DNA of 64,000 bases, from NCBI RefSeq assembly GCF_000374165.1, contig NZ_KB893670.1, positions 1 to 64,000 of the forward strand, in the 5' to 3' direction. The translations under genes were made by a program, and so were the position numbers. Position 1 is the first letter of the stretch, and each line of letters opens with the position of its first letter. This DNA is from Parafrankia elaeagni (GTDB taxonomy: Bacteria > Actinomycetota > Actinomycetes > Frankiales > Frankiaceae). This document shows, in pieces, positions 4,870 to 8,196 of the stretch. The notes under the pieces were generated by a model. The model saw only the letters and a list, made by a program, of their open reading frames with translations. It did no database searches and was not told the origin of the DNA.

Positions 4870-7800
4870 TCAGATCAGGCGCAGCTGACGGCCGGCCGAG
4901 CGGCGGCGGGCCCGGGCGGCGTCGGCCGGCGAGCCGGCCCGCTTCTCCAGGTGCCGGCCGTCGATCGCCGCCAGGAACGGCGACGGGCCGGTCTCCACCG
5001 GCTCGCCGCCACGGCGGCGCCGCGCGGCATGGGTGAGGACCAGCCGGCGGCGGGCCCGGGTGATCCCGACGAAGAACAGGCGCCGCTCCTCCGCCTCCCC
5101 GTCCGTCTCCGCAGCGGGGGGTGCGGCGCCCCACCGCAACGGCAGCAGGCCCTCCTCGCAGCCTACGATGATCACCATGTCGAACTCCAGGCCCTTGGAG
5201 GCGTGCAGGGTCAGCAGGGAGATCCGGTCGGCGCGCGGGTCGAGCCCGTCCACCTCGGTGCCGAGCGTGACCGCGGTCAGGAAGGCCGCGAGATCGTCGC
5301 CCGCAGCCGCGGCGGGTGGGGTCAGCAGCTCGACGGCACGGCGGATCTCCGCCGCGGTCGGCAGCCGGCCCGGGCCCGGCTCCCGCTGTGGCCCGGCCGC
5401 GGTCCCCTCGCTGCCGAGGACGGAGTCCGCCGCGTCCGCGAGGTCGGCGAGACGGGCGGCGGCGTCCCGCAGCAGTGCGGTCACGGCACGCGGTGCGGTC
5501 ACGGCACGCGGTGCCGCCTCGTCGCCGTCGCGCAGGTCGGCCAGCAGGGCCGCGACGGCCGGCAGGTCCGCGAGTGGGGTGTGCGAATGCTGCCGGAAGG
5601 GGAACCCGCGCCGCAGCAGTGCGTCGACGATCGGCTCGGCCTGCCGGGACGTCCGGTAGAGGACCGCGATGTCGGCGAAGGACAACCGGCCCCGCTCCGA
5701 GCCGTCCACGCCCGAGTCGAGAGCGTGGAACGATGTGCCGCCGAGGGCCTCCTCGACGAGCTCGGCGACGACGCCCGCCTCGTCCGCCTCACTCGCGCAC
5801 CGCCGGACCACGACGGGGCTGTCCTCGTCCGCCGCGGTCACCGCGCGCAGCTCCCGGCCGGGGACGAACGTGCTGGGCGCGATCGCGTCCAGCGCCGCCC
5901 CGACGATGGTCGGGGTCGAACGGTAGTTGCGGGTCAGCGAGACCCTCCGGGTGCCGGGGCGATCCTGCGCGAAACGCAGGAAGAAGCCGACCTCCGCCCC
6001 GCGGAAACTGTAGATGGCCTGGTCGGGGTCGCCGATCGCGCACAGGTCGCCCTCCGGCGGGCAGAGCTCGCGCAGCAGCCCGTACTGCACCTCGTCGATG
6101 TCCTGGAACTCGTCGACCCAGACGTGGCGCCACCGCTGCTGGTACTCACGGGCCAGGTCCGGCGCCGACCGCAGGAGCCCGAGCGGGAGGGTCACCAGAT
6201 CGTCGAGGTCCACCATGTTGCGGTCGCGCAAAGCGGCGTCGTACCGCGCGAGCGCCCCGGCGGACGGGTGCTCCCGGTAGGACTGGCCGAGCGCGCGCCG
6301 CCGTTTGAGCTCGGCCAGCGCGGCGATGGCGCGCCCGCGGGCCACGGCGCTGCCGGCGCCGTGCAACGCCTCGTCCACCAGCTCGGCGCGGACGGCGTCG
6401 TCGGCCACCTGCACCTGCGGTGCGCGCGCGAGCGCCCCGTGCCGCTCGCGGATGATCATAAGCCCGAGCCCGTGGAACGTCGTGGCGGTCACCCCGGCCC
6501 CGTCCGGGCCGAGCAGGGGGTCGAGCCGCTCCCGCAGCTCGCCGGCGGCGCGGCGGGTGAACGTCACGGCCAGGCACTGCCCGGCGGGCACCGACAGCTC
6601 CCGCACCCGGTGGGCGATGGCGTGCACCAGCGTGCGGGTCTTTCCGGTGCCCGGCCCGGCGAGGACCAGCAGCGGGCCGCCGGAATGCTCGGCCGCTCGG
6701 CGCTGGTCCGGGTCCAGTCCGCCGAGGGCGGAGCGGGGGCCCTCGTCGGATCCGCCCGCGGTGTCCGATGCGGTGCTGGTCGGCAGCGACTGCGGTGGCT
6801 CCCCCGACCGGAGGGTGAGCGGCTCCGGGGCCTCACCCACGTCGGCGGCGAGTGCACTGGGGCGTCGTCCGGCGGCCCGGCTCCGCCGGCCACGGCCCGG
6901 TGCCGGCGGGCCGGCGTCGAAGAGGGTTCCGGCGTCGGCGCCGAGCTCGCCGGGCTGGAACAGCCGGATGACGCCGTACTCGCCGTCGTAGCCGGCCTCG
7001 CGGATCACCTCACCGCGGCGCAGGCGCCCGATGCCCTCCACCAGCGTCGGCGAACCAGCCTCGGCGATCGCGTCGAGGGGGACGTCCGAGAGGATGCCGA
7101 GTTCTGGCCCCAGCCGGGACACCAGCGCCGTGACCTGGGTCGCAACGGACTTGCTCTTGGGCCCGACACCGAGGATCTCCCCGACGATCTCGGGCAGGGC
7201 GACGAGCGAGGTGACCTCGCCGGCCGTGTCGGGCCGCCGCGACTCGGTCCGGTCGGAGAGCGTGTCGACCCGGTTGAGCACCCCGACGGTCAGACCCCGC
7301 CCGCAGGCGGGGCAGATGCCGCCGAGCGCACGGGTCTCGTCCGGGGTGAGCGCGACACCGCACCTGCGGTGCCCGTCGTGGTGGTACTTCCCCTCCTCGG
7401 GAAAGAACTCGACGGTGCCGCCGAAACCGTCGCCGGTGCGCAGCGCGCGCAGGATCGAGAAGTAGTCGGGCTCGCAGGTGAAGGCGGTCGCCTCCCGGCC
7501 GAGCATCGGCGGGGAGTGCGCGTCGGAGTTGCTGACGAGTCGGTACCGGTCGAGCCCGGAGATCCGCCAGAACATCTCCGGGTCAGCGGAGAGCCCGGTC
7601 TCCAGCGCGAAGACCTCGTCCGCGAGATCGGCATAGCAGTCCTCGACCGCGTCGAAACCCGACTTCGAGCCGAGAACGGCGAACCAGGGCGTCCAGACGT
7701 GCGCCGGAACCAGGTAGCAGTCCTCACCGCCACCGAGGGTTATCTCCAGCAGGTCGCGGGAGTCCAGGCCGAGGATCGGGCGTCCGTCGGCGGCCAGGTT

Positions 7801-8196
7801 GCCGATTCGGGCCAGTGCGGACGTGATCCGTCCGGCCGACTCACGATCGGGTGCGTAGAGAAGGTGATGGACCTTTCTGGTGCGCTCACCACGCTTGTAG
7901 ATCGTGGAGATCTCGGTGGAGATCATGAATCGCGTCGCGGTGCGGCACGATGCCGGCAGCGTCGCGAGGACGTCGCGCTCCAGGTCCGGACGCAGCCGGA
8001 ACAGCCCGGGCTCCGCCGGCACCAGTTTGGTCGCCAGCTCCTGCGACCAGGCCGGATGGGTGAAGTCGCCGGTACCGACGACGCGGATGCCTTTCCGGGC
8101 CGCCCACCACGCCAGGTGCTCCAGGTCGCAGTCGCGGCTGCACGCCCGCGAGTACCTGGAGTGGACGTGGGTGTCGGCAAAGAACCGTGACCTCAC
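4870..8196 (-). CDS. EndoQ-like PHP endonuclease fused to UvrD/Rep-family SF1A helicase
   Basis: The protein has 1108 residues. Residues 1-430 match the endonuclease Q / TIGR00375 family: PHP metal motifs FADTHVHSRYS (6-16), GTGDFTHPAW (41-50), STEIS, PAHVWTPWF, SNSDAHSP (222-229), then the zinc-binding RRCG (277-280) with CPACG (295-299) and the C-terminal YDGEYGVIRLF. Archaeal and Bacillus EndoQ cut DNA 5' of deaminated bases and abasic sites. After a 60-residue disordered linker, a complete helicase follows: DPDQRRAA, Walker A GPGTGKT (514-520), TFTRRAAGELR, VDEFQDIDE (694-702), GDPDQAIYSFRG, NYRSTPTI, LLTLHASKGLEFD and GITRARRRL. The GTG at 8196 puts the PHP motif at the extreme N terminus as in the family; codons upstream lack homology. 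It is divergent from another helicase-nuclease. A role in excision repair of deaminated DNA is inference; defence is possible. Confidence 0.9.
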   Translation of the reverse strand: MRSRFFADTHVHSRYSRACSRDCDLEHLAWWAARKGIRVVGTGDFTHPAWSQELATKLVPAEPGLFRLRPDLERDVLATLPASCRTATRFMISTEISTIYKRGERTRKVHHLLYAPDRESAGRITSALARIGNLAADGRPILGLDSRDLLEITLGGGEDCYLVPAHVWTPWFAVLGSKSGFDAVEDCYADLADEVFALETGLSADPEMFWRISGLDRYRLVSNSDAHSPPMLGREATAFTCEPDYFSILRALRTGDGFGGTVEFFPEEGKYHHDGHRRCGVALTPDETRALGGICPACGRGLTVGVLNRVDTLSDRTESRRPDTAGEVTSLVALPEIVGEILGVGPKSKSVATQVTALVSRLGPELGILSDVPLDAIAEAGSPTLVEGIGRLRRGEVIREAGYDGEYGVIRLFQPGELGADAGTLFDAGPPAPGRGRRSRAAGRRPSALAADVGEAPEPLTLRSGEPPQSLPTSTASDTAGGSDEGPRSALGGLDPDQRRAAEHSGGPLLVLAGPGTGKTRTLVHAIAHRVRELSVPAGQCLAVTFTRRAAGELRERLDPLLGPDGAGVTATTFHGLGLMIIRERHGALARAPQVQVADDAVRAELVDEALHGAGSAVARGRAIAALAELKRRRALGQSYREHPSAGALARYDAALRDRNMVDLDDLVTLPLGLLRSAPDLAREYQQRWRHVWVDEFQDIDEVQYGLLRELCPPEGDLCAIGDPDQAIYSFRGAEVGFFLRFAQDRPGTRRVSLTRNYRSTPTIVGAALDAIAPSTFVPGRELRAVTAADEDSPVVVRRCASEADEAGVVAELVEEALGGTSFHALDSGVDGSERGRLSFADIAVLYRTSRQAEPIVDALLRRGFPFRQHSHTPLADLPAVAALLADLRDGDEAAPRAVTAPRAVTALLRDAAARLADLADAADSVLGSEGTAAGPQREPGPGRLPTAAEIRRAVELLTPPAAAAGDDLAAFLTAVTLGTEVDGLDPRADRISLLTLHASKGLEFDMVIIVGCEEGLLPLRWGAAPPAAETDGEAEERRLFFVGITRARRRLVLTHAARRRRGGEPVETGPSPFLAAIDGRHLEKRAGSPADAARARRRSAGRQLRLI

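What the first reader, a model, noticed from the sequence alone, without database searches (positions are those of the whole stretch)
4870..8196. Deaminated-base endonuclease (EndoQ) fused to a UvrD-type helicase
The same polypeptide carries a full EndoQ-like PHP domain with both zinc cysteine pairs and a full SF1A helicase. EndoQ nicks 5' of deaminated bases or abasic sites, and the fused helicase could peel the nicked strand. That would make a self-contained alternative excision-repair machine. The domains are seen directly; the biochemical coupling is inference.
Basis: partly seen in the sequence, partly recalled or inferred. Interest (0 to 1): 0.7.

Follow-up and report, generated by a model that had tools for sequence, protein, structure and literature searches.

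The report
Clamp-tethered damaged-DNA nuclease-helicase fusion
One bacterial protein joins a cutter that probably nicks DNA beside damaged (deaminated) bases, a motor that unwinds DNA, and a short tail that probably hooks onto the replication clamp; it looks like an old, widespread but unstudied gene that could carry out the first steps of a DNA repair pathway.

Summary

A beta-clamp-binding motif ends 72 of 74 intact fusions (1.4 expected), 0 of 16 conventional UvrD/PcrA, and 1 (strict) or 2 (loose) of 17 EndoQs without a nearby helicase.

My searches found no paper on it.

Likely mechanism: clamp-docked nicking 5' of U, Hx or AP sites, then helicase displacement of the lesion strand. Activities are inferred by homology; coupling is untested. 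UDG co-occurs in 40 of 40 genomes examined.

Side finding: Gastranaerophilales keep an A9/A10 run at the EndoQ/helicase junction, suggesting dnaX-like slippage.

The parts
4870..8196 (-). gene of the EndoQ-like / UvrD-family fusion, 1108 aa, GTG start, stop at 4872-4870
   Evidence: homologues over full length
6937..8196 (-). EndoQ-like half, aa 1-420 (PHP catalytic domain, zinc-binding domain, C-terminal helical domain)
8161..8175 (-). PHP motif D8-T-H10-V-H12 (Pfu D6, H8, H10)
   Evidence: D and second H 43 of 43, first H 41 of 43 fusions
7516..7527 (-). PHP motif S224-D225-A226-H227 (SDAH)
   Evidence: 43 of 43 fusions
7303..7371 (-). zinc site H276-x2-C279 ... C295-x2-C298 (His-Cys-Cys-Cys instead of four Cys)
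   Evidence: columns 276, 279, 295, 298 invariant in 43 sequences; alignment to PfuEndoQ
6739..6936 (-). disordered linker aa 421-486, starting with a TLFD motif (F conserved in 37 of 43)
   Evidence: pLDDT below 50; linker sequences; column counts
4918..6738 (-). SF1A helicase half, aa 487-1093, signature motifs present
5242..5571 (-). shortened 2B-like region, approximately aa 876-985 (limits approximate)
   Evidence: LYRT-to-motif-V spacing, median 117.5 vs 200 aa
4873..4887 (-). C-terminal clamp-binding peptide QLRLI (aa 1104-1108), in a disordered tail
   Evidence: Q and second L invariant 43 of 43; motif in 72 of 74 intact fusions vs 1.4 expected; pLDDT below 50 for aa 1100-1108; canonical motif as given in PMC11139829 (passages)

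Best explanation
It is a clamp-tethered excision-repair initiator. The C-terminal QLxL(F/L/I) peptide docks the protein on the beta sliding clamp (inferred from a strongly conserved motif). The EndoQ-like half flips out a deaminated or abasic nucleotide and hydrolyses the phosphodiester 5' of it, leaving 3'-OH and 5'-phosphate (inferred from homology and conserved active site). The 3'-to-5' SF1A helicase half, held within reach by a flexible linker of about 50-150 aa, loads on the opposite (template) strand at the nick. Moving 3' to 5' there, it displaces the lesion-bearing strand from its 5' end while a clamp-bound polymerase extends the 3'-OH (inferred from polarity). A flap nuclease and ligase finish. 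Shown here: the architecture, catalytic residue conservation, clamp motif, and shared history of the two halves. Not shown: any of the activities or their coupling.
For: Full-length homology and modelled fold to PfuEndoQ and to PcrA/UvrD. Counterparts of Pfu D6, H10, E76, H84, H139, E167, G169, S171, D193, H195 (chain numbering of 5zb8) are 43 of 43 and H8 41 of 43; helicase residues 43 of 43. Clamp motif in the last 15 residues of 72 of 74 intact fusions, shuffled expectation 1.4; 0 of 16 conventional UvrD/PcrA; 2 of 17 EndoQs without a helicase nearby by the loose pattern, 1 by the strict one. Archaeal EndoQ has a C-terminal PCNA-binding box through which PCNA stimulates cleavage (PMC4858679, passages), so clamp docking is a shared theme. 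The EndoQ and helicase trees agree (r 0.93; 23 shared supported splits, 1 conflict). In 296 genomes of the phylum the five helicase-half matches of 378 bits or more are all in fusion-length frames that carry the EndoQ match; the other matches listed score 223 bits or less (up to 4 candidates scored per genome). It is a near-core gene of the own family (30 of 36 genomes), and the EndoQ half has no match in phage, plasmid and viral collections, as expected of housekeeping repair. No neighbour gene recurs at a fixed place across distant loci, so no obligatory operon partner was seen. The polarity is right: EndoQ leaves 3'-OH/5'-P (PMC4357722, passages) and UvrD moves 3'-5' (PMC7776575, passages).
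Against: No activity has been measured for any fusion as far as I found. The helicase half scores far below the PcrA/UvrD/Rep equivalog cut-offs and its 2B region is shortened, so substrate and polarity could differ. The EndoQ half misses the TIGR00375 cut-off (118.8 vs 326.6 bits) and has His for one zinc Cys. UDG is present in 40 of 40 genomes examined and EndoV in 18 of 40, so the need for this pathway is not obvious. EndoQs with no helicase nearby also occur in bacteria, and four of them (L068, L077, L092, L094) sit inside the fusion clade of the tree, so the helicase seems dispensable in some lineages.
Confidence: 0.58

Rival explanations
1. Motor first, cut second: the clamp-bound helicase opens or scans DNA at forks or primer ends and presents single-stranded template to the EndoQ half, which cuts deaminated bases found there; the helicase is a scanner or loader, not a strand peeler.
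For: PfuEndoQ cuts U and Hx in single-stranded DNA (PMC11354406, passages). The clamp motif would put the enzyme at primer ends. The flexible linker does not fix the two halves in one orientation.
Against: Cutting single-stranded template at a fork would break the chromosome, a poor choice for a near-core gene. Nothing in the sequence separates it directly from the preferred model.
Confidence: 0.2
2. Simple tethering: the two enzymes share only a clamp address. EndoQ nicks and the helicase works on other clamp-associated substrates, with no coupling within one repair event.
For: The linker is variable and disordered. A few relatives have EndoQ with no helicase nearby, also inside the fusion clade, and in four Gastranaerophilales the frame is broken exactly between the halves.
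Against: The helicase half is a distinct subfamily found only in fusion-length frames in the 296 genomes sampled, the two halves share a tree, and in 3 of 4 split genomes no ATG/GTG/TTG start allows a free complete helicase.
Confidence: 0.15
3. Anti-phage nuclease-helicase, for example against uracil-containing phage DNA or in the manner of Gabija.
For: PADLOC GajB models match the helicase half (best 1.9e-71). A review suggests that Bacillus EndoQ may take part in antiviral defence (PMC8307549, passages). The divergent neighbour 8272-15105 resembles candidate defence proteins PDC-S37 and Hhe.
Against: The GajB matches lie on the generic UvrD-like helicase part, and no OLD-type (GajA) nuclease domain was found among the 10 neighbouring frames scanned with Pfam. 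No neighbour recurs at a fixed place. Near-core in its family (30 of 36), congruent trees, no EndoQ-half match in phages, plasmids or viral contigs: unlike typical defence genes.
Confidence: 0.06

Closest known systems
Endonuclease Q (EndoQ; Pyrococcus furiosus PF1551, PDB 5zb8, 7k30-7k33; Bacillus EndoQ)
   Different: Fused to a helicase; one zinc ligand is His; below the TIGR00375 cut-off; the clamp peptide sits at the end of the helicase half, not of the EndoQ half.
UvrD / PcrA / Rep SF1A helicases (PDB 1pjr, 1qhg, 2is1, 4c2u, 1uaa)
   Different: Far below equivalog cut-offs (321.9 vs 911.2 bits for PcrA); 2B region shortened; a GGxSF...DS insert in 54 of 74 fusions and 0 of 16 conventional ones; terminal clamp motif.
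Gabija GajA/GajB nuclease-helicase pair
   Same: A nuclease working with a UvrD-like helicase (GajB profiles match).
   Different: PHP-type lesion endonuclease instead of an OLD-type nuclease (recalled), one polypeptide, near-core in its family.
UvrC/UvrD and MutL/UvrD excision steps (recalled, not tested)
   Same: Nick followed by UvrD-driven strand removal; MutL-type nicking is clamp-linked.
   Different: Here lesion recognition, nick and motor would be in one chain, without UvrAB or MutS.

Membership tests
EndoQ | homology over the whole EndoQ length, not only the PHP domain | tested here: met
EndoQ | PHP metal ligands and essential E76, H84, H139; SDAH motif | tested here: met
   all in the window protein; 43 of 43 in aligned fusions except H8 with 41 of 43
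EndoQ | base-pocket residues G169, S171 (and E167) | tested here: met
   43 of 43; role of G169 and S171 in passages of PMC8307549
EndoQ | four-cysteine zinc motif, suggested as a possible signature in PMC4357722 (passages) | tested here: not met
   His-Cys-Cys-Cys in 43 of 43 fusions and HRxC in 17 of 17 EndoQs without a helicase nearby; so filed as EndoQ-like, a His-variant branch
EndoQ | NCBIfam TIGR00375 curated cut-off (326.6 bits) | tested here: not met
   118.8 bits, E 3.5e-34
EndoQ | nicking 5' of U, Hx and AP sites | not testable with these tools
   needs an assay
SF1A (UvrD-like) helicase | Pfam UvrD-helicase and UvrD_C above gathering scores, signature motifs | tested here: met
   201 vs 23 bits and 109.2 vs 25.6 bits; motif residues 43 of 43; six motif patterns all found in 69 of 74 fusions, five of six in the other 5
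PcrA / UvrD / Rep orthologue | NCBIfam equivalog cut-offs | tested here: not met
   best 321.9 vs 911.2 bits: a separate subfamily
SF1A (UvrD-like) helicase | 3'-5' unwinding with ATP | not testable with these tools
   needs an assay
beta-clamp client | clamp-binding motif of the form Q-aliphatic-x-[L/M]-[F/L] (PMC11139829, passages) | tested here: inconclusive
   QLRLI fits four of five positions; its last residue is I, where F or L stands in 36 of 43 aligned fusions. As a family: Qxx[LM]phi in 72 of 74
beta-clamp client | physical binding to DnaN | not testable with these tools
   needs a binding assay
Gabija | adjacent GajA-type nuclease gene | tested here: not met
   ten flanking frames scanned: EAL, aat, methyltransferase, aminotransferase, AAA/REase protein, FmdA, and four without a Pfam match at 1e-5

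The most novel reading that the evidence does not exclude
A widespread, unstudied class of one-chain excision-repair initiators: a lesion nicker and a strand-peeling motor on one clamp-docked polypeptide, running next to glycosylase-initiated repair. In Gastranaerophilales the ratio of free EndoQ to EndoQ-helicase would be set by transcriptional slippage on a conserved A9/A10 run exactly at the domain junction, as T. thermophilus dnaX does for its two products.
Probability: 0.4. Interest if true: 0.78.

Novelty: new variant of a known kind. Interest (0 to 1): 0.63.

Why it matters
The papers that I saw describe EndoQ as mainly archaeal with a few bacterial cases. A bacterial family in which evolution has joined an EndoQ to a UvrD-type helicase and given it a clamp-binding tail names a candidate for what follows the EndoQ nick, and makes it testable with one purified protein. 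It also adds many EndoQ relatives across Actinomycetota, Pseudomonadota, Planctomycetota, Elusimicrobiota and Gastranaerophilales. The A9/A10 junction would be a new case of programmed slippage setting the dose of a repair enzyme.

Tried and rejected
Mobile or phage origin: the EndoQ half gave no match in phages or plasmids and none in viral contigs (43 pattern matches, none a relative). The whole gene as DNA against plasmids met 44 records, best coverage 10%, on helicase-type stretches; no fusion. Gene partner: clustering of 4904 frames of 90 aa or more from 81 loci found no neighbour family that recurs beyond related genera at a fixed place; one family of 10 loci recurs at scattered distances of 3-10 kb on both sides. 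Shadow frames in G+C-rich loci limit that test. Replacement of UDG: rejected, UDG-superfamily genes in 40 of 40 genomes searched, picked from the 81 available (37 with an intact fusion, L050 with a frame break, L077 and L094 without helicase). Replacement of EndoV: not supported, 18 of 40 have it, five of these with weak partial hits only; the own genome has none. A second clamp motif at the EndoQ/linker border (TLFD): F conserved in 37 of 43, but no conserved Q, so not claimed. Gabija: rejected. VIA-align rows are a second look at Foldseek's list only. Rows dropped: 12 of 81 proteins were left out of the motif count: 4 run off a contig (L022, L045, L085, L087; all four already contain helicase motif I), 2 have frame breaks inside the helicase half (L050, L063), 2 are split (L079, L089), 4 have no helicase (L068, L077, L092, L094). 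One search uses the same 69 plus 5 further fusions; 4 of its 74 were left out of the tree comparison because a pattern did not find their Walker A site; 4 of 20 fetched conventional helicases gave no intact frame and were not counted. A2 holds 43 of the 69, chosen for spread. In 'fused' was judged by frame length, not by reading each protein, except those fetched. For the 17 EndoQs without a helicase nearby, the stretch held downstream is short in L113 (0.7 kb) and L115 (0.4 kb) and 2.0-2.8 kb in L109, L092, L148 and L151-L154. The synonymous-shuffle test used 20 of 25 genes and treats related genes as independent; one search repeats it with one gene per cluster. The tree was midpoint-rooted.
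Full report

THE CATALYTIC RESIDUES. Mapped through the phmmer alignment (chain numbering of 5zb8), the counterparts of Pfu D6, H10, E76, H84, H139, E167, G169, S171, D193 and H195 are invariant in 43 of 43 fusions, and H8 is kept in 41 of 43. E76, H84 and H139 are essential, and H139, G169 and S171 shape the base pocket in PfuEndoQ (PMC8307549, passages). In the helicase half the Q motif Q498, Walker A K519-T520, D695-E696, Q726, R732, R759, K1001, E1004 and R1047 are 43 of 43. Neither half looks dead.

The protein ends in QLRLI. In the first set, 64 of 69 intact fusions have Q[LM]xL-hydrophobic within the last 25 residues, 61 of them as the very last five; the other five end in close variants such as QQRLF or QRTLF. 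In the enlarged set, 72 of 74 have Qxx[LM]-hydrophobic in the last 15 (67 in the strict form); shuffled C-termini give 1.4 and 0.19. Of the two misses, L120 ends QLSFL and L027 has QLSLL 17 residues before its end. The canonical clamp-binding motif is Q-aliphatic-x-[L/M]-[F/L], with QLxLF among the strongest (PMC11139829, passages); the window's last residue, I, departs from it. None of 16 conventional UvrD/PcrA proteins has the motif at the end. Of 17 EndoQs with no helicase nearby, 1 has it in the strict form (L122...EQLSLL) and 2 in the loose form. Archaeal EndoQ uses a C-terminal PCNA box that is needed for stimulation by PCNA (PMC4858679, passages), so clamp docking is a shared theme, here placed after the helicase.

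A DISTINCT HELICASE SUBFAMILY. In 296 genomes of the phylum the helicase half finds five strong matches (378 to 1332 bits), all in fusion-length frames that also carry the EndoQ match. The other matches listed are at 223 bits or less, with up to four candidates scored per genome. The spacing that holds subdomain 2B is shorter (median 117.5 aa in 70 of 74 against 200 in 12 of 16, with overlapping ranges), and a GGxSF..DS insert is seen in 54 of 74 fusions and 0 of 16 conventional helicases. Removal of 2B activates Rep (recalled, not looked up), so a small 2B could mean a motor that works as a monomer; this is inference.

HOW WIDESPREAD. Of these, 68 are intact fusions, 4 run off a contig end inside or before the end of the helicase, 2 have frame breaks in the helicase part, 2 are split between the halves and 4 have no helicase in the stretch held. 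By record titles (phylum placement partly recalled) the intact fusions come from Actinomycetota, Binatia, Alphaproteobacteria, Myxococcales, Planctomycetota, Verrucomicrobia, Elusimicrobiota and Gastranaerophilales. In phylum samples, genomes with an EndoQ match and, of those, with a frame of 900 aa or more: own phylum 9 of 296 and 5 (two of the nine are only generic PHP proteins); Pseudomonadota 18 of 249 and 10; Planctomycetota 24 of 199 and 10; Elusimicrobiota 44 of 198 and 18; the phylum of Gastranaerophilales 47 of 194 and 36. These phylum names are inferred from the record titles of the centre loci. In the window's own family 30 of 36 genomes have the EndoQ half, 29 of the 30 in frames of 1156 aa or more. 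The nearest named relatives are Frankia (81% identity in the EndoQ half).

SHARED HISTORY. Trees of the two halves agree: patristic distances correlate at 0.93 over 70 proteins; of 28 and 42 supported splits 23 are shared and one EndoQ-half split is contradicted. In the EndoQ tree (midpoint root) the fusions group together, with four helicase-less members (L068, L077, L092, L094) nested inside, best read as later losses, while other Pseudomonadota EndoQs without a helicase and L122 lie outside. This fits one old fusion, without proving it. No neighbour recurs at a fixed place beyond related genera, and the EndoQ half has no phage, plasmid or viral-contig match.

HOW IT PROBABLY WORKS. EndoQ cuts 5' of U, Hx, Xan and AP sites, leaving 3'-OH and 5'-P (PMC8307549, PMC4357722, passages). 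A 3'-5' motor (UvrD polarity, PMC7776575, passages) that loads on the template strand at that nick moves under the lesion-bearing strand and peels it from its 5' end, while the 3'-OH is ready for a clamp-bound polymerase. The geometry, the clamp tail and the joint history of both halves favour this over chance tethering. The activities come from homology; the coupling is inference. It is not a stand-in for UDG: a UDG-superfamily gene is found in 40 of 40 genomes examined. EndoV is in 18 of 40 and not in the window's own genome. Its main substrate may therefore be Hx, AP sites or another lesion, or it may serve at the clamp where glycosylases do not.

A SECOND FINDING IN RELATIVES. Counted by clusters of over 93% identity this is 12 of 17 (my count from the pairs). 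Shuffling synonymous codons within 20 in-frame genes gives 6.25 at the junction (observed 13; no shuffle of 300 above 12) and 5.9 elsewhere (observed 0). With one in-frame gene per cluster (12 genes) it is 2.3 at the junction (observed 7; 0 of 1000 shuffles reach it) and 1.8 elsewhere (observed 0; 83 of 1000 shuffles as low, so the avoidance elsewhere is not significant). In four genomes (L079, L089, L149, L155) the frame changes at the run or just after it: EndoQ stops there and an intact 562-574 aa helicase frame ending in QL[ST]LF follows. In L079 and L155 that frame has no ATG, GTG or TTG before Walker A; in L149 the only one lies inside the domain; L089 has three. Runs of nine A slip during transcription, and T. 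thermophilus dnaX uses this for two products (PMC1088944, passages). The likely meaning is that one gene makes both free EndoQ and EndoQ-helicase. Against: the genes are related (EndoQ-half identity among carriers 76-99%), most of these genomes are metagenome-assembled by their titles or unnamed, and homopolymer errors cannot be excluded. A survey paper on prokaryotic frame transitions (PMC3711429) has none of the words UvrD, PHP or helicase in its main text.

LITERATURE. Full-text searches for the fusion found no description of it. Of the papers they listed I opened passages of PMC7776575, PMC3820547 and PMC8307549; three others listed were not opened. Of 16 papers naming EndoQ I saw passages of five. 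Most subscription papers and all bioRxiv preprints are outside the library, so 'unreported' is limited to these searches.

Noticed in passing
L050, L052, L056, L073, L079, L081, L089, L095, L096, L098, L149, L155-L157, L159-L161, L166, at the codons just after the EndoQ domain: Conserved A9/A10 run exactly at the EndoQ/helicase junction in Gastranaerophilales (18 of 25 genes, none elsewhere in the gene), with four genomes split there; suggests transcriptional slippage making two products.
   Followed up: partly
window 8272-15105, + strand: Divergent neighbour, a 2277-aa frame with AAA_11/AAA_12 helicase and MTES_1575 restriction-endonuclease domains, resembling defence candidates PDC-S37 (3.5e-52) and Hhe (2.3e-22); its frame starts about 75 bp from the fusion's start.
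   Followed up: partly
L043 (record titled Rhodococcus rhodnii NRRL B-16535): Its fusion is almost identical to that of Kibdelosporangium philippinense (L039) and its genome is 12.4 Mb: the record is probably mislabelled.
   Followed up: no
L109-L113, L115, L116 (Pseudomonadota sample): A second set of bacterial EndoQs with no helicase in the stretch fetched (short for L113 and L115) and, unlike the fusions, no C-terminal clamp motif; they fall outside the fusion clade in a midpoint-rooted tree.
   Followed up: partly
fusion helicase half, window protein aa 819-830: A family-specific insert GGxSFxSxDS before the 2A LYRT strand, in 54 of 74 fusions and 0 of 16 conventional UvrD/PcrA; role unknown.
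   Followed up: no
window 214-4851: Frames on the downstream side of the gene are an EAL-domain protein, leucyl/phenylalanyl-tRNA transferase (aat), a methyltransferase (- strand) and a class I/II aminotransferase; none was seen beside the fusion in distant genomes.
   Followed up: partly
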